This document shows, in pieces, positions 15,240 to 28,996 of a DNA stretch of 64,000 nt. This DNA comes from Winogradskyella arenosi. Lineage in GTDB: Bacteria > Bacteroidota > Bacteroidia > Flavobacteriales > Flavobacteriaceae. The position numbers and the translations under genes were made by a program. The stretch is taken from contig NZ_QPJO01000001.1 of assembly GCF_003337305.1 (NCBI RefSeq), positions 1,017,203 through 1,081,202 on the forward strand, written 5' to 3'. A model generated the notes under the pieces. That model did no database searches. It was not told where the DNA came from and saw only the letters and a list, made by a program, of their open reading frames with translations. How positions within the stretch are numbered: position 1 is the first letter of the stretch; each line of letters begins with the position of its first letter.

Positions 15240-15314
15240 AAATCTAATGATTAAAATATAATAATTCAGTTATGAAAAACCGTTCGATTACAGGGTCGCT
15301 AGAGAAGTAGAAAA

Positions 15315-15417
15315 CTTACTGCTTTAGCATTTTTTATTCTGAAGTGATTTCAGAATCTGTTCTTAATGAACAGGTACTGAAAAGGTTTCAGTACTAGAGG
15401 TTGCAATCAGACAAATT
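15315..15417 (-). ncRNA. Candidate SAM-II-like riboswitch in the metK leader
   Basis: Read on the minus strand, the leader carries GTCTGATTGCAACCTC, then three perfect hairpins (GTACTGAAA/TTTCAGTAC, CTGTTC/GAACAG, ATTCTGAA/TTCAGAAT), then AAAAAATGCTAAAGCAG. The pieces TGATT..ATTGCAA and AAATG..CTAAA recall the conserved core of SAM-II, in which a 3' A-rich strand forms a pseudoknot in the loop; long inserted loops are known for variants of this class. It lies in front of metK, a natural SAM-controlled gene. The identification is by eye, and the pairing of the pseudoknot was not fully resolved. Confidence 0.5.
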
Positions 15418-15555
15418 TTTCCTCTTTTAATTTCATGGCAAAAGTACGTATTAAAATTTATACAGAAGACCTTATTATCTAAAGAAAACCTTAAAAATTG
15501 AAATTGAGAAGGCTTTAACTTTTTATGATGATTAAAATTGTCTTAGATTTACACT

Positions 15556-23768: not shown

Positions 23769-24665
23769 TTATGACTTCGTTAAATCTTGAAATAAGCTTT
23801 CTAAAGTGGCATTCTTCTGATTCAGTTGTAATATTTTCAACTCATTATCATGGGCAAAATCAAAGACATGAGAACGCATGTCTTCTTTTGTGTTAAAGGT
23901 AATTTCATAAACAAAGCCATAGGTGTTGGTTACAGACTTTACCTTTGGTAATCTTAATAAAAAAGCATCTTCCACTCTAAAATCAAACTCCACAATGACC
24001 ACTTGTTCTTGACCATCTCTAAGATCTTTTAAGTATTTGTCGGCAACAACTTCACCTTTATTTATAATAATCACACGGTCGCACATAGCTTCCACCTCTT
24101 GCATAATATGCGTAGATAAGAAAACCGTTTTCTCTTTCCCAATCGTTCTAATTAAGTTTCTAATGTCTATAAGTTGGTTAGGATCTAACCCTGTTGTGGG
24201 TTCATCTAAAATTAAAACTTCAGGGTCGTGCAATAAGGCATTGGCCAAACCAACCCGTTGTCGATAACCTTTAGAAAGCTGGGCAATTTTTTTATGAGCT
24301 TCTGGTTCTAATCCTGTTAATTTAATAACCTCGTCTATTCTAGATTTCGGAGCACCATACACATTGGCGTTAAAGTTTAAATACTCCTTAACGTAAAGTT
24401 CGGTGTAAAGCGGATTGTGTTCTGGGAGATAACCAACGCTTGCCTGAACCTCTTTTTTAGCCGTGTTAACATCAAAACCATTAACCTTAGCAGTACCTTC
24501 AGAGGCCTGTATATAGGTGGTTAAGATTTTCATCATGGTCGATTTTCCAGCACCATTTGGTCCTAAAAAACCAACAATTTCAGCATCTTTTACCTTGAAA
24601 GAGACTTCGTTAAGTGCTTTCTGATCTTTGTAGAATTTCGTGATGTTTGAGACTTCAATAGACAT
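23769..24665 (-). CDS. gldA: Gliding-motility ABC transporter ATP-binding protein GldA
   Basis: ABC ATPase of 298 residues. Walker A GPNGAGKST (about 36-44), signature LSKGYRQRVGLANALL, Walker B VLILDEPTTGLDPN, and a C-terminal extension typical of GldA (QLNQKNATLESLFQDLT). In Flavobacterium johnsoniae GldA acts with GldF and GldG in a membrane transporter needed for gliding. gldF and gldG are not in this window, which is normal because gldA is usually separate. Confidence 0.88.
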   Translation of the reverse strand: MSIEVSNITKFYKDQKALNEVSFKVKDAEIVGFLGPNGAGKSTMMKILTTYIQASEGTAKVNGFDVNTAKKEVQASVGYLPEHNPLYTELYVKEYLNFNANVYGAPKSRIDEVIKLTGLEPEAHKKIAQLSKGYRQRVGLANALLHDPEVLILDEPTTGLDPNQLIDIRNLIRTIGKEKTVFLSTHIMQEVEAMCDRVIIINKGEVVADKYLKDLRDGQEQVVIVEFDFRVEDAFLLRLPKVKSVTNTYGFVYEITFNTKEDMRSHVFDFAHDNELKILQLNQKNATLESLFQDLTKS

Positions 24666-24770
24666 AGAAATAGAATTTATTCAAAAGTAGTTATTTCCGA
24701 ATATTGTAATGCAATTATTGTTAAATCTTTAAAATATTAAATTTATTCAGAAAAAAACAATACAACAATT

Positions 24771-24799
24771 TTGATTTGTAAAAATAATAATTACATTAG
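24771..24799 (+). promoter_or_regulatory. Candidate promoter of the aromatic operon leader
   Basis: TTG (24771-24773), an 18-base spacer and TACATTAG (24792-24799) approximate the Bacteroidota TTG/TAnnTTTG pattern, with two mismatches in the -7 half. It would start a transcript a few bases before the hairpin at 24816. Confidence 0.35.
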
Positions 24800-24815
24800 C
24801 CTTATAATTAAAATT

Positions 24816-24831
24816 GTCCACCTAAGTGGAC
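24816..24831 (+). promoter_or_regulatory. Hairpin ahead of the aromatic leader peptide
   Basis: GTCCAC-CTAA-GTGGAC, a perfect 6-bp stem, followed by CCTTAAG and the leader ATG. The same layout, hairpin then ATTAAG then ATG, occurs before paaC and before the last gene of the window. Confidence 0.55.
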
Positions 24832-24838
24832 CCTTAAG

Positions 24839-24889
24839 ATGAACATATCTAGAGCATATTATAACTGGTTTTATTTCTTTTTTAGCTAA
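24839..24889 (+). CDS. Aromatic amino acid leader peptide (attenuator)
   Basis: A 16-residue ORF, MNISRAYYNWFYFFFS, with three Tyr, one Trp and four Phe codons, seven of these eight falling within residues 7-15 as Tyr-Tyr-Asn-Trp-Phe-Tyr-Phe-Phe-Phe. It lies 137 bases before prephenate dehydratase and is followed at once by an antiterminator segment and an intrinsic terminator. Stalling on aromatic codons when charged tRNA is scarce would leave the antiterminator segment free. The composition is far from random and fits the products of the operon exactly (Phe, Tyr and the common pathway). Confidence 0.88.
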   Translation: MNISRAYYNWFYFFFS

Positions 24890-24890
24890 A

Positions 24891-24959
24891 GGAACGAGAC
24901 TGAGTATGTTTTATTTAAAATATAGTATTTAAAGTCTCGATCTAATCGAGACTTTTTTT
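24891..24959 (+). terminator. Attenuator: antiterminator and intrinsic terminator
   Basis: The terminator is AAAGTCTCGAT-CTA-ATCGAGACTTT (24931-24955) with a T-run to 24959. The alternative fold pairs GGAaCGAGACT (24891-24901), which begins one base after the leader stop codon, with AGTCTCGaTCT (24933-24943): about ten pairs with one mismatch. The two folds share 24933-24941 and exclude each other. A ribosome resting at the leader stop (24887-24889) would cover 24891-24901 and favour termination; a ribosome stalled upstream would leave it free and favour read-through. Confidence 0.85.
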
Positions 24960-25026
24960 GTTTAAAACCTTTTTGAAGTGAAAGCCTCCTAAATTTTTTA
25001 AGCCTGTAGAATTAAAAAAAATAATT

Positions 25027-25854
25027 GTGAAAAAACCAATCGCCATACAAGGAGTAAAAGGATCATTTCATCATGAAGTGGTTTGTAACTATTTTGATAA
25101 TCAGTCTGATGTTGTGGAGTGTATGACCTTTGATACGGTGATTAAAACTTTATTAGATGAGGATTCAGATGAAATTGTAATGGCTTTAGAAAACTCTATA
25201 GCAGGATCTATTATTCCAAATTATGCTTTAATTGATAACAACCATTTAAGTATTGTTGGTGAGTATTATTTAGATATTCAGCATCAGCTAATGGCGCTTA
25301 ATAATCAGGCTATCGAAGATATTAAAGAAGTGCATTCGCACCCAATGGCCTTATTACAATGTAAGGCTTTTTTTAAAGCGCATTCGCATATAAAATTGGT
25401 AGAAGCTAAAGATACGGCAGAGGTTGCAAGACAAATTTCAGAGCAACAATTAAAAGGAATTGCCGCTATAGCAAGTAAAACGGCGGCAGCGCTTTACGGC
25501 TTAAATATTTTAGCGCAGAGTATCCAAACCATAAAAGAAAATGAAACACGCTTTGTTATTGTAAAGCGGGTTCAGGATAATAACAACCAAGCGCTTATTA
25601 ATAAAGCGTCTTTTAAGTTTGAATTAGAACACAAACGTGGCAGTTTGGCGAGCTTACTCAATGTATTAAGTGATTGCCAACTGAACCTTACTAAAATTCA
25701 ATCTTTACCAAAAATTGATACACCATGGAAGTATGCGTTTTTTGTAGATGTGACTTTTGACGCGTATAAAAATTACGAAAAAGCAAAGTCCATAATGACC
25801 ATTATGGCTGAGAATTTTAAAGTACTAGGAGAATATAAAAATGCAAAACGATGA
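25027..25854 (+). CDS. pheA: Prephenate dehydratase
   Basis: Converts prephenate to phenylpyruvate for phenylalanine. The dehydratase domain (about 1-180) starts IAIQGVKGSFHHEV and includes VMALENSIAGSI and the ETRFVIV end motif (the T of TRF is catalytic). A C-terminal ACT domain (about 195-275), with FKFELEHKRGSLASLLNVLSD, should give allosteric control by phenylalanine. There is no fused chorismate mutase; that activity is on the DAHP synthase three genes on. The start is GTG. First gene behind the attenuator; it overlaps the next gene by four bases. Confidence 0.93.
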   Translation: MKKPIAIQGVKGSFHHEVVCNYFDNQSDVVECMTFDTVIKTLLDEDSDEIVMALENSIAGSIIPNYALIDNNHLSIVGEYYLDIQHQLMALNNQAIEDIKEVHSHPMALLQCKAFFKAHSHIKLVEAKDTAEVARQISEQQLKGIAAIASKTAAALYGLNILAQSIQTIKENETRFVIVKRVQDNNNQALINKASFKFELEHKRGSLASLLNVLSDCQLNLTKIQSLPKIDTPWKYAFFVDVTFDAYKNYEKAKSIMTIMAENFKVLGEYKNAKR

Positions 25855-26993
25855 TTGAAGTTGCAAAACGTTTACAAAAAGTTGAAGAATACTACTTTTC
25901 TAAAAAGCTAAAAGAAGTTGCATTTTTAAAATCACAAGGGAAGCCTATAATTAATTTAGGAATTGGAAGTCCAGATTTAGAACCTCCATTTAAAGCTTCA
26001 ATGATGCTTCAAGATAGTTTAATGGAGCCTGAAGCGCATCAGTATCAGAGTTATCAGGGCTTGCCAGAATTAAGAGATGCTATTGCTAGTTTTTATAATA
26101 AGCACTTTCAAGTGCACTTAAGTGGGCAAACAGAGGTATTACCTTTAATGGGAAGCAAAGAGGGGATTATGCATATCTCTATGGCGTTTTTAAACAAAGG
26201 AGATAAGGTTTTAATTCCTAATCCAGGCTACCCAACTTATGCGGCAGTAACAAAATTGTTAGAAGCAAAACCGGTCATGTATGATTTAAAAGCCGATCGT
26301 AATTGGGAACCCGACTTTGGTGCTTTAGAACGTTTAGACCTTAGCCGTGTTAAAATTATGTGGATCAATTATCCGCATATGCCAACTGGAGCTAATGCAA
26401 CTAATAAGTTTTATGATAAGGTGATTGCCTTTGGTAAACGTCACGATATTTTAATTGTAAATGATAATCCTTACAGCTTTATACTTAATGACAAACCCAA
26501 TAGCATTATGAGGTACAGAGATGCTAAAGACGTTTGTTTAGAGTTAAACTCCTTAAGTAAAACCTTTAATATGGCCGGATGGCGTGTTGGAATGTTAGTG
26601 GGGAAATACGATTTTGTAAATGCCGTATTACGAGTAAAAAGTAATATGGATTCTGGAATGTTCTTCGGAATACAAAAAGGGGCTATTGAAGCTTTAAAAT
26701 GTTCTGATATCTGGTTTAAAAGTTTAAATAGTGTCTATCAAAGACGAAGAGCTTTAGTCTATAAATTGGCACAAGCTTTAAATTGTACCTATGATGACCA
26801 AGCCACAGGGATGTTTGTGTGGGCAAAATTGCCACCTCATATAAAATCTGAAGAATTTACAGATTTAGTCTTAAAAGAACATTCTTTATTTATAACACCA
26901 GGAACCGTCTTTGGAAGCAATGGAGAAGGTTATGTGCGGTTTTCATTATGTGCGGAAGAAGACCTTATTGAAGAGGCTATTTCAAGAGTATAA
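25851..26993 (+). CDS. Class I/II aminotransferase (probably aromatic)
   Basis: PLP-dependent aminotransferase of 380 residues. NLGIGSPDLEPP and YQSYQGLPELRDAIA are N-terminal family blocks; the PLP lysine is in LNSLSKTFNMAGWRVGM, and the C-terminal Arg that binds the carboxylate is in GYVRFSLC. Its place between prephenate dehydratase and prephenate dehydrogenase suggests it aminates phenylpyruvate and hydroxyphenylpyruvate, the last step to Phe and Tyr. An aspartate or LL-diaminopimelate preference cannot be excluded by sequence alone. Confidence 0.88.
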   Translation: MIEVAKRLQKVEEYYFSKKLKEVAFLKSQGKPIINLGIGSPDLEPPFKASMMLQDSLMEPEAHQYQSYQGLPELRDAIASFYNKHFQVHLSGQTEVLPLMGSKEGIMHISMAFLNKGDKVLIPNPGYPTYAAVTKLLEAKPVMYDLKADRNWEPDFGALERLDLSRVKIMWINYPHMPTGANATNKFYDKVIAFGKRHDILIVNDNPYSFILNDKPNSIMRYRDAKDVCLELNSLSKTFNMAGWRVGMLVGKYDFVNAVLRVKSNMDSGMFFGIQKGAIEALKCSDIWFKSLNSVYQRRRALVYKLAQALNCTYDDQATGMFVWAKLPPHIKSEEFTDLVLKEHSLFITPGTVFGSNGEGYVRFSLCAEEDLIEEAISRV

Positions 26994-27038
26994 GGATCTA
27001 AAGGTCATGTGACCTTAGGACGAAACAAAGAAAAAAAA

Positions 27039-27890
27039 GTGAAAAATATATTTATAATAGGAACCGGTTTAATTGGAGGAAGTTTTGCTTTAGATATAAA
27101 AGCATTACACCCTGATTGTAAGGTTTTCGGAATTGATACAACTGAAGCACATCTTGATGAAGCTTTAGCTTTAGGAATCATCGATGAGAAAGCAGATTTT
27201 GAGGCGCTACATAAAGCAGATGTCGTTATTATTGCTATTCCTGTAGATGCAACCTTAAAAGTTTTACCAGAGGTTTTAGATCAGGTTTCAGATGATGCCA
27301 TCGTTTTTGATGCGGGCTCTACCAAAGAAGATATTTGTGCGGTGGTAAAATCGCATCCTAAACGTCGTAATTATTTAGCGGTGCATCCTATTGCAGGTAC
27401 GGAGCATTCTGGCCCTAAAGCGGCCATAAAAGACTTGTATAAAAACAAGACCAATATTATTTGTGAAGTAGAAGTGACGGCCTTTAAGTTGCAAGAAAAA
27501 GCCTTAAAGTTGTTTTCAGATTTGGGTATGCGTATTCGTTATATGAATCCCAAGGCTCACGATAAGCATATAGCTTATGTGTCGCATTTATCGCATATAA
27601 GTGCGTTTATGTTAGGTAAAACGGTTATTGATAAAGAGCGTAATGAACGCGATATTTTTGATATGGCCGGTAGTGGATTTGCAAGTACGGTGCGTTTAGC
27701 AAAAAGTTCGCCCGCGATGTGGTCGCCAATTTTTAACCAAAATAAAACCAATGTGATTGAAGCTTTAGATGAATATATTAATAATTTAAAGCATTTTAAA
27801 GAACTTATGGAAGCCCAAGATTTTAACGAGGTTTTTAATGAGATGGAAAAAACAAATTATATTAAAGAGATATTAAAAGGAATTCAATAG
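27039..27890 (+). CDS. tyrA: Prephenate dehydrogenase
   Basis: Oxidative decarboxylation of prephenate to hydroxyphenylpyruvate for tyrosine. NAD fold IFIIGTGLIGGSFALDI at the N terminus, then DAGSTKED, the substrate motif HPIAGTEHSGPKAA, and the helical dimer domain with YVSHLSHISAF. Start: GTG 27039 puts the protein directly on the NAD fold; an in-frame GTG at 27009 would add ten residues (charged, low complexity) and is less likely. 283 residues, no ACT domain. Confidence 0.92.
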   Translation: MKNIFIIGTGLIGGSFALDIKALHPDCKVFGIDTTEAHLDEALALGIIDEKADFEALHKADVVIIAIPVDATLKVLPEVLDQVSDDAIVFDAGSTKEDICAVVKSHPKRRNYLAVHPIAGTEHSGPKAAIKDLYKNKTNIICEVEVTAFKLQEKALKLFSDLGMRIRYMNPKAHDKHIAYVSHLSHISAFMLGKTVIDKERNERDIFDMAGSGFASTVRLAKSSPAMWSPIFNQNKTNVIEALDEYINNLKHFKELMEAQDFNEVFNEMEKTNYIKEILKGIQ

Positions 27891-27913: not shown

Positions 27914-28996
27914 ATGGAAAACACGAAAGAAATGAGAACATGGTTAGATGATATGAAGTTAAATCATCCCTTGGTTATTGCCGGGCCATGCAGTGCGGAA
28001 ACAGAAGAGCAAGTCTTAAAAATAGCTCATGAGCTAAAAGATACAGATGTTAATTACTATAGAGCAGGAATTTGGAAACCAAGAACGCGTCCAGGAAACT
28101 TTGAAGGTGTTGGAGCCTTAGGTTTAAAATGGTTGCAAAAGGTAAAGGCAGAAACAGGATTAAAAACAGCAACGGAAGTGGCTAATAGAAATCATGTAGA
28201 GCTTGCTTTAGAACACGATGTAGATTTATTGTGGATTGGTGCCCGTTCTACTGTAAGTCCTTTTATTATGCAAGAAATTGCTGATGCTTTAAAAGGAACT
28301 GATAAGGTGGTTTTAGTTAAAAATCCTGTAAATCCAGACTTAGCCTTATGGTTAGGAGGTATTGAAAGATTACATAGTGCCGGAATCAAAAATTTAGGTG
28401 CTATTCACAGAGGGTTTTCAACCTATGAAAAATCAAAATATAGAAATATTCCAGAATGGCAGTTGGCTATTGAATTTCAGAATAGGTTCCCAGACTTACC
28501 TTTAATTAATGACCCATCGCATATTACAGGAAAGCGAGATATGATTTTAGATGTTTCTCAAACGGCCTTAGATCTTAATTTTGATGGCTTAATGATAGAA
28601 ACGCATTTCGACCCGGATAACGCTTGGAGTGATGCTGCACAGCAAGTAACGCCTAAGAGCCTCGTGCAGATTATGAACGACTTAAAGATTAGAAAAGAGT
28701 CAGATCCGGAAGCTGAGTATAATTCAGAATTAAATAATCTTAGAGCACAAATTGATGTGGTTGATAATCAGATTATTGATTTGTTAGGAAAACGTATGAA
28801 AGTTGCTGATGGTATTGGGAAACTTAAAAAGCAGAAAAACGTGGCGGTTTTACAAAATAAGCGTTGGAATGAAATTTTAGGAAATATGGTTCTAGAAGGC
28901 GAATCTAGAGGCTTAAGCGAAGAATTTGTTTTACGTATGTTTAAAGCCATTCACCAAGAATCAATAAACCACCAAGAGAAAATCGTAAAAGATTAA
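27914..28996 (+). CDS. DAHP synthase - chorismate mutase fusion
   Basis: Residues about 1-255 are a type I-beta (KDO8P-like) DAHP synthase, the entry enzyme of the shikimate pathway: VIAGPCSAETEEQV, YRAGIWKPRTRPGNFEG, NLGAIHRGFS and DPSHITGKRD supply substrate and metal ligands. Residues about 270-355 are an AroQ-type chorismate mutase (LRAQIDVVDNQIIDLLGKRM with the usual Arg/Lys/Glu). The fusion puts the entry step and the branch step in one protein and lets prephenate or chorismate act as a feedback signal. Common in Bacteroidota. Last gene of the operon; a terminator follows. Confidence 0.93.
   Translation: MENTKEMRTWLDDMKLNHPLVIAGPCSAETEEQVLKIAHELKDTDVNYYRAGIWKPRTRPGNFEGVGALGLKWLQKVKAETGLKTATEVANRNHVELALEHDVDLLWIGARSTVSPFIMQEIADALKGTDKVVLVKNPVNPDLALWLGGIERLHSAGIKNLGAIHRGFSTYEKSKYRNIPEWQLAIEFQNRFPDLPLINDPSHITGKRDMILDVSQTALDLNFDGLMIETHFDPDNAWSDAAQQVTPKSLVQIMNDLKIRKESDPEAEYNSELNNLRAQIDVVDNQIIDLLGKRMKVADGIGKLKKQKNVAVLQNKRWNEILGNMVLEGESRGLSEEFVLRMFKAIHQESINHQEKIVKD

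What the first reader, a model, noticed from the sequence alone, without database searches (positions are those of the whole stretch)
24771..24960. Complete leader-peptide attenuator for Phe/Tyr/Trp ahead of the aromatic operon
Seen: a 16-codon ORF MNISRAYYNWFYFFFS (eight aromatic residues), a segment GGAaCGAGACT starting one base after the leader stop, and an intrinsic terminator whose left arm can pair with either that segment or its own right arm. The geometry lets the ribosome itself mask the antiterminator when it reaches the stop codon; no separate 1:2 pause hairpin is needed or visible. Known: this is the logic of the E. coli pheA and trp attenuators. Inference: because Tyr, Trp and Phe codons alternate, shortage of any of the three could trigger read-through of pheA-aminotransferase-tyrA-DAHP synthase. 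Ribosome-mediated attenuation is, to my knowledge, little described in Bacteroidota.
Basis: partly seen in the sequence, partly recalled or inferred. Interest (0 to 1): 0.88.

Follow-up and report, generated by a model that had tools for sequence, protein, structure and literature searches.

The report
Aromatic leader-peptide attenuator before pheA operon
Before its genes for making phenylalanine and tyrosine, this marine bacterium carries a tiny gene rich in those very amino acids and an RNA switch that very probably lets the genes be read only when the amino acids run short; many related bacteria share it, and it is a classic kind of switch in a phylum where such switches have been little studied.

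Summary
Confirmed. Window 24839-24889 encodes MNISRAYYNWFYFFFS (8 aromatic of 16), followed by GGAACGAGACT and an 11-bp terminator whose left arm can pair with CGAGACT or with its own right arm. The upstream gene (gldA) is divergent, so the terminator can only act on transcripts heading into pheA-aminotransferase-tyrA-DAHP synthase/chorismate mutase. The host groups with Winogradskyella. Of 252 distinct PheA upstream regions, 222 have an aromatic ORF plus a terminator after it; controls give 0/252 (reverse strand) and 3/756 (shuffles). Antiterminator 2:3 and terminator 3:4 covary (0/500 shuffles reach either score). The same genome has His, Trp and Ile/Val/Leu leaders with terminators; the Trp one is Rfam Bacteroid-trp. 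A 2021 Flavobacterium psychrophilum paper already noted a conserved pheA 5' element without an Rfam hit, and clues for leader-peptide attenuation ahead of amino-acid operons. It is a real, deeply conserved, previously glimpsed member of a known kind. No experiment was done.

The parts
24770..24773 (+). possible upstream promoter element TTTG (18 nt before the -7 box)
   Evidence: sequence; a TTG at comparable spacing in 88 of 117 genus/family representatives, without a shuffled control; that these are promoter elements is recalled knowledge of Bacteroidota promoters
24792..24799 (+). Bacteroidota-type -7 box TACATTAG (TAnnTTnG)
   Evidence: motif within 90 nt upstream of the leader start in 111 of 117 genus/family and 18 of 23 other class representatives; shuffled rate 15% and 18%
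24816..24831 (+). inverted repeat GTCCACCTAAGTGGAC between promoter box and leader ATG; clade-specific
   Evidence: CCAC-N4-GTGG in 14 of 89 distinct genus/named rows, none in the other rows
24839..24889 (+). leader ORF MNISRAYYNWFYFFFS with TAA stop
   Evidence: aromatic ORF (>=6 F/Y/W in 10 codons) in 229 of 252 distinct PheA upstream regions
24850..24880 (+). segment 1: codon region that pairs with segment 2
   Evidence: fold; pair counts on alignment A1
24895..24901 (+). segment 2 core CGAGACT (antiterminator 5' strand); the whole 1:2 partner region is 24888-24913
   Evidence: direct repeat of the terminator right arm; covariation with segment 3
24931..24941 (+). segment 3: left arm of terminator, also antiterminator 3' strand
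24945..24955 (+). segment 4: right arm of terminator; the T-run continues to 24959
25027..25854 (+). pheA, prephenate dehydratase (GTG start)
   Evidence: NF008865 E 6e-58, 196 bits, below its curated cut-off of 219
25851..26993 (+). PLP-dependent aminotransferase
   Evidence: best match NF006756 (LL-diaminopimelate aminotransferase), 406 bits, below its cut-off of 507; substrate not established
27009..27890 (+). tyrA, prephenate dehydrogenase
   Evidence: NF006307 390 bits, over its cut-off of 295
27914..28996 (+). DAHP synthase / chorismate mutase
   Evidence: NF009239 E 2e-56, below its cut-off, plus chorismate mutase-domain matches at about residues 271-358, most below cut-off

Best explanation
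A ribosome-mediated transcription attenuator. Transcription starts about 24804-24807 (inferred from the -7 box). A ribosome enters the leader ORF. If Phe-tRNA and Tyr-tRNA (and in this genus probably Trp-tRNA) are charged, the ribosome reaches the stop codon at 24887, where its leading edge covers part of segment 2; segment 3 is then free to pair with segment 4 and RNA polymerase terminates at about 24956-24960. If the ribosome stalls on an aromatic codon, segment 2 is exposed, the 2:3 antiterminator forms before segment 4 is made, and polymerase reads on into pheA-aminotransferase-tyrA-DAHP synthase/chorismate mutase. Segment 1 can pair with segment 2 (1:2), probably as a transient pause or protector hairpin. 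Shown here by computation: the ORF, the mutually exclusive helices, their covariation, conservation and the promoter box. Inferred: start site, translation, termination, stalling, coupling and sensing.
For: ORF (>=5 aromatic in 10 codons) + terminator 25-190 nt downstream in 222 of 252 distinct PheA upstream regions: 85/89 genus and named loci, 114/122 family, 23/41 class members outside the family; nulls 0/252 and 3/756. Antiterminator 2:3 on 40 sequences: 86.8% of 280 cells paired, 22 cells changed on both sides against 8.1 in shuffles, 0/500; slid versions 25-48%; on 140 sequences 86.8% of 978 cells. Dokdonia has the segments exchanged as a set. Terminator 3:4: 94.3% of 437 cells, 37 double changes against 3.6, 0/500. 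Coding: in 1400 core codons 591 Phe, 399 Tyr, 97 Trp against 6 Leu, 4 Ile, 6 Cys; one peptide column is aromatic in 117/117 through four codons. Geometry: the last aromatic codon starts 14 nt before segment 2 in 77/85 genus/named rows, and 10-15 nt before it in 84/85, 107/114 and 15/23. Folding with a ribosome mask: P(2:3) mean 0.95 at the best aromatic codon, 0.04 at the stop, 139 sequences; window leader 0.96 on every aromatic codon, 0.00 at the stop. gldA is divergent. The same genome has His, Trp and Ile/Val/Leu leaders with terminators. An RNA model gives 42 hits in 148 order genomes, 32 of them before pheA.
Against: No expression data. Without a ribosome the equilibrium fold still favours 2:3 (mean 0.67; 0.92 in the window leader), so 1:2 does not by itself enforce termination in untranslated RNA; a strict three-state criterion is met in only 33 of 139 sequences. 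In the mask model a stall on any codon before segment 2 gives antitermination, so it does not show aromatic specificity. Functional coupling of ribosome and polymerase in Bacteroidota is assumed. 30 of 252 rows lack the ORF + terminator combination; some are filter or contig limits, in others pheA follows a long open frame. The test with foreign terminator arms was weak.
Confidence: 0.9

Rival explanations
1. A constitutive partial terminator with a structurally constrained U-rich ORF: the aromatic codons are conserved only because U-rich segment 1 must pair with purine-rich segment 2; translation plays no part.
For: Segment 1 does pair with segment 2 and shows some covariation; Phe/Tyr codons are U-rich.
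Against: Codon content: 6 Leu, 4 Ile, 6 Cys and 97 Trp in 1400 core codons where position-specific base composition predicts about 83, 90, 113 and 10; Phe/Tyr interchange and third-position T/C change dominate (the core window was chosen for aromatic content, which inflates this). ATG start in 214 of 222. His, Trp and Ile/Val/Leu leaders stand before the matching genes of the same genome.
Confidence: 0.05
2. A metabolite- or protein-binding riboswitch-like element for an aromatic amino acid that uses the same terminator, with the leader peptide incidental.
For: Alternative structures are also riboswitch-like; the 24816-24831 inverted repeat could bind a protein.
Against: No Rfam match at this locus (L001) even at E <= 1; no conserved aptamer-like block visible, the loop between segments 2 and 3 being A/T-rich and variable; the inverted repeat is confined to 14 of 89 genus/named rows.
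Confidence: 0.03
3. A nascent-peptide arrest sensor: the aromatic peptide itself stalls the ribosome in response to free amino acid (TnaC-like, recalled), rather than codon hunger.
For: Strong peptide conservation within the genus.
Against: Residues at most positions drift between Phe, Tyr and Trp, which suits codon counting better than a specific arrest peptide; the His and Trp leaders of the same genome use runs of their own codon.
Confidence: 0.02

Closest known systems
E. coli pheA (pheL) and trp (trpL) attenuators (mechanism recalled; Rfam Phe_leader RF01859)
   Same: Leader ORF rich in the end-product codons, mutually exclusive 1:2, 2:3 and 3:4 helices, intrinsic terminator ahead of the biosynthetic operon.
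   Different: No Rfam match to Phe_leader at this locus. The leader mixes Phe, Tyr and often Trp codons; in 175 of 222 relatives the ORF runs into segment 2 and in 145 past it (in the window it stops just before); Shine-Dalgarno-like motif in only 1 of 140, and a very short inferred 5' UTR in most relatives.
Bacteroid-trp leader (Rfam RF01692; listed in a table of PMC2864571, passages read)
   Same: Same phylum and layout; the host's own trpE leader scores 67 bits against a cut-off of 49.
   Different: Stands before trpE with a run of Trp codons; the pheA locus does not match it.
pheA 5' element of Flavobacterium psychrophilum
   Same: Structured 5' element upstream of pheA, said to be present in other Flavobacteriaceae genera; the paper reports strong clues for leader-peptide attenuation ahead of amino-acid operons.
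   Different: The parts of the main text that I read do not give the peptide, the alternative helices, covariation or spread beyond the family.
Multivalent leaders such as E. coli thrL (Thr/Ile) and ilv leaders (recalled)
   Same: More than one amino acid represented in one leader.
   Different: Here the mix is Phe + Tyr (+ Trp).

Membership tests
ribosome-mediated transcription attenuator (trp/phe type) | short leader ORF rich in codons for the operon's products | tested here: met
   (translation itself not measured)
ribosome-mediated transcription attenuator (trp/phe type) | intrinsic terminator between leader ORF and first gene, on the operon strand | tested here: met
   (termination itself not measured)
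ribosome-mediated transcription attenuator (trp/phe type) | antiterminator competing for the terminator's left arm, with covariation | tested here: met
ribosome-mediated transcription attenuator (trp/phe type) | 1:2 pause/protector hairpin between the codon region and segment 2 | tested here: inconclusive
   it folds (mean z -3.0 in 140 sequences) and shows covariation on three of five measures beyond all shuffles, but loses to 2:3 at equilibrium in most sequences without a ribosome
ribosome-mediated transcription attenuator (trp/phe type) | ribosome at control codons frees segment 2, ribosome at the stop covers it | tested here: met
   by computation with an assumed footprint only:
ribosome-mediated transcription attenuator (trp/phe type) | read-through rises when the cognate aminoacyl-tRNA is short | not testable with these tools
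   needs transcript measurements
Rfam Phe_leader RF01859 | covariance-model match | tested here: not met
   no match on L001 (this locus) at E <= 1
Rfam Bacteroid-trp RF01692 | covariance-model match | tested here: not met
   matches the host's trpE locus L297, not the pheA locus L001

The most novel reading that the evidence does not exclude
One leader acts as an OR-gate for Phe, Tyr and (in this genus) Trp hunger and is an inherited feature of much of class Bacteroidia, which would require working ribosome-polymerase coupling in a phylum whose leaders here lack Shine-Dalgarno-like sites, on an RNA whose 5' UTR is only about a dozen nucleotides in most relatives; in one relative the unit is tripled in series, which would sharpen the response.
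Probability: 0.4. Interest if true: 0.7.

Novelty: new member of a known kind. Interest (0 to 1): 0.5.

Why it matters
Ribosome-mediated attenuation works only if a ribosome follows RNA polymerase closely. How far the two are coupled outside Proteobacteria is an open question (recalled). A covarying attenuator found in family after family of the class, with His, Trp and Ile/Val/Leu counterparts in the same genome, makes coupling in Bacteroidota directly testable and offers a ready reporter. The pheA element is also a candidate for a new Rfam family: no family matches it now, and a 40-sequence model recovers it before pheA in 32 of 42 hits, the ten others all being weak, E 1.6e-5 or worse.

Tried and rejected
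The E. coli-type promoter scan found one site against a shuffled mean of 2.7, and I set it aside in favour of the Bacteroidota -7 box. The 2:3 helix against shuffled regions: own score 17.3 against 11.0, 3% of shuffles as good; but the 'foreign arm' test was weak because many genomes share one arm: a foreign arm did as well as the own one in 3412 of 8591 draws. Column covariation replaced it. The equilibrium test of 1:2 as a sequestering hairpin without a ribosome failed in most sequences: below 0.3 in only 32 of 139. The upstream regions of the aspartokinase/homoserine dehydrogenase gene show a conserved Ile/Thr leader-like peptide in 6 of 7 but no attenuator-like terminator after it. Ile/Val/Leu leaders before ilvD: by a crude test an ORF with at least 8 such residues and a terminator after it is seen in the own genome and in 2 of the 9 other full-length loci.

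Model R1: 42 hits in 37 of 148 genomes. 30 gave loci, 29 of these before pheA; L389 is a gene-end terminator. Of the other 12 hits, the G599 hit and two more tandem copies in G618 are before pheA; the remaining nine, fetched, show no pheA. Some of these genomes had contributed to the model.

Rows dropped: 22 identical upstream regions. The 30 of 252 rows without ORF + terminator stay in the counts: in L033, L037, L103 and L104 a terminator is visible but missed by the filter, L108 is a truncated contig, L151 and L202 have a terminator further up, and L143, L144, L205-L207, L230 and L244 have a long open frame running up to or near pheA; the rest are unexplained. Alignment A1 is 40 of the 117 genus/family representatives, picked by hand. 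Not examined: 28 of the 69 class genomes outside the family with a PheA match, and 103 of the 226 family genomes with one. L145-L244 were oriented from the strand in the hit tables. In one search four loci at contig ends were cut at the wrong place; one search repeats them correctly (trpE then shows the leader and terminator in 15 of 15).

Papers: PMC9723704 passages and section 19; PMC2864571 and PMC4833913 passages; all others search listing only. A 2010 comparative paper on attenuation (PubMed id 20198868) is not held. I therefore do not claim that the element is undescribed.

Full report
WHAT IS THERE. The stretch between gldA (minus strand, start codon at 24665; TIGR03522, 446 bits, over its cut-off) and pheA (25027) holds, in order: a Bacteroidota-type -7 box TACATTAG 24792-24799 with TTTG 18 nt further up; a short inverted repeat 24816-24831; a leader ORF 24839-24889, MNISRAYYNWFYFFFS; GGAACGAGACT 24891-24901; and an intrinsic terminator 24931-24955 with a T-run. 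Because gldA is divergent, no neighbouring upstream gene is served by this terminator: a transcript from this intergenic region that meets it is heading into pheA. The operon is pheA, a PLP aminotransferase, tyrA and DAHP synthase/chorismate mutase. The nearest named relatives are Winogradskyella species.

IS IT MORE THAN CHANCE. I collected 274 PheA upstream regions: 50 of the 58 matching genomes of the genus, 57 named loci that partly overlap these, and 167 from family and class searches (stretches). After dropping 22 duplicates, 252 remained. An ORF with at least 6 aromatic residues in 10 codons is present in 89/89 genus and named rows, 116/122 family rows and 24/41 class rows outside the family. 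An ORF with at least 5, plus a terminator 25-190 nt downstream, is present in 85/89, 114/122 and 23/41. The same combined test gives 0/252 on the reverse strand and 3/756 on dinucleotide shuffles; the ORF alone (6 or more) arises in 13/252 and 67/756, so it is the combination that carries the significance.

THE COMPETING HELICES. On 40 sequences the 2:3 antiterminator pairs in 86.8% of 280 cells, with 22 cells changed on both sides (shuffles 8.1, 0/500 as high); sliding the partner by 1-3 columns drops pairing to 25-48%. The 3:4 terminator pairs in 94.3% of 437 cells with 37 double changes (shuffles 3.6, 0/500). An alignment of 140 sequences, counted by script, gives 86.8% of 978 and 92.3% of 1507 cells. 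The tool warns that relatedness alone can exceed shuffles. In Dokdonia the segments are replaced as a set: ATCAGGA in segments 2 and 4, TCCTGAT in segment 3.

IS THE ORF TRANSLATED. In 140 representatives the ten core codons hold 591 Phe, 399 Tyr and 97 Trp but 6 Leu, 4 Ile and 6 Cys, where position-specific base composition predicts about 83, 90 and 113 of the last three (the window was chosen for aromatic content, which biases this upward, and stops are excluded by definition). One aligned column is aromatic in 117/117 genus and family peptides through TTC, TTT, TAC and TAT. Start codons are ATG in 214 of 222. A TAnnTTnG box lies within 90 nt upstream in 111 of 117 genus/family representatives (shuffles 15%), a median of 18 nt before the start codon, and Shine-Dalgarno-like motifs occur in 1 of 140. 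A 5' UTR of roughly a dozen nucleotides is my inference from the box position; in the window the gap is 39 nt.

HOW IT WORKS. The last aromatic codon starts 14 nt before segment 2 in 77 of 85 genus/named rows, and 10-15 nt before it in 84/85, 107/114 and 15/23 rows of the three groups. With a ribosome footprint masked (edges assumed at -17 and +11 from the A-site), the probability of the 2:3 helix in a transcript ending just after segment 3 averages 0.95 at the best aromatic codon and 0.04 at the stop (139 sequences; 136 above 0.5, 132 below 0.3). In the window leader it is 0.96 on every aromatic codon, 0.82 on the following Ser and 0.00 at the stop. Part of this follows from the masking itself, and a stall on an early non-aromatic codon scores equally high; what is not built in is that the aromatic run ends where coverage of segment 2 would begin. 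With no ribosome the mean is 0.67, and 0.92 in the window, so 1:2 cannot be the whole story for untranslated RNA; it can form earlier in transcription and may act kinetically or as a pause hairpin. In 175 of 222 leaders the ORF continues into segment 2 and in 145 beyond it, so there a translating ribosome sweeps over the antiterminator strand; in the window the ORF stops just before it.

WHICH AMINO ACIDS. Phe and Tyr occur in all 222 leaders; Trp in 79/85, 79/114 and 10/23. Phe + Tyr matches the operon's products. Trp sensing is plausible in this genus but is not a general property.

GENERALITY. In the same genome hisG is preceded by MTFIQLHHHFHTSNQAR, trpE by MKTNTTHTWWWNFSNLRS and ilvD by MNRQFLNSIIIIRIEIILRRHGML, each with a terminator after it. 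A His leader with a terminator is seen in 15 of 15 hisG loci, and a Trp leader with a terminator in 15 of 15 full-domain trpE loci; ilvD leaders were found in few loci by the crude test. The host's trpE leader is Rfam Bacteroid-trp, 67 bits against a cut-off of 49. A covariance model of the pheA leader gave 42 hits in 37 of 148 order genomes; 32 stand before pheA and ten, all at E 1.6e-5 or worse, do not. The host genome has a single hit.

WHAT IS KNOWN. PMC9723704 (passages and section 19 read) reports strong clues for leader-peptide attenuation ahead of amino-acid operons in F. psychrophilum and a 5' element of pheA shared with other Flavobacteriaceae genera and without an Rfam hit; its supplements were not open to me. 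PMC2864571 (passages read) lists Bacteroid-trp. So neither the mechanism in Bacteroidota nor the existence of a pheA element is new. In the papers listed by my ten searches I saw no account of the peptide, the helices and the spread through the class, but subscription papers are not covered. I file it as a new member of a known kind.

Noticed in passing
L370 1189-1622 (genome G618, a relative of the same order, another family): Three Phe-rich leader ORF + terminator units in series before pheA (MKHITENKAFSFEAFFFNRKTQA, MNNLVSTFRFFGFFFFRKEGAMS, MNQNTQQNFSFFGFFFFKWKSEAVD), without Tyr. Seen in one genome; the only other genome held of that family has one weak partial hit. The term 'tandem attenuators' is in print for Salmonella mgtCBR (PMC3641672, listing only).
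   Followed up: partly
window 15314-15430 (-): SAM-II riboswitch (RF01726, long-loop type), 51 bits against a cut-off of 44.
   Followed up: no
L354-L360, upstream of the aspartokinase/homoserine dehydrogenase gene: A conserved Ile/Thr-rich leader-like peptide (MFFISTIITLWGNL type) in 6 of 7 genomes, about 60-110 nt before the gene, without an attenuator-like terminator after it: possibly another mode of leader control.
   Followed up: partly
window 24816-24831: CCAC-N4-GTGG inverted repeat at a fixed place before the leader ATG in 14 of 89 genus/named rows, with changing loops and outer pairs; not in the other rows. Possible operator or 5' RNA hairpin.
   Followed up: partly
L277, L297, L328 (own genome): His, Trp and Ile/Val/Leu leader peptides with terminators before hisG, trpE and ilvD.
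   Followed up: partly
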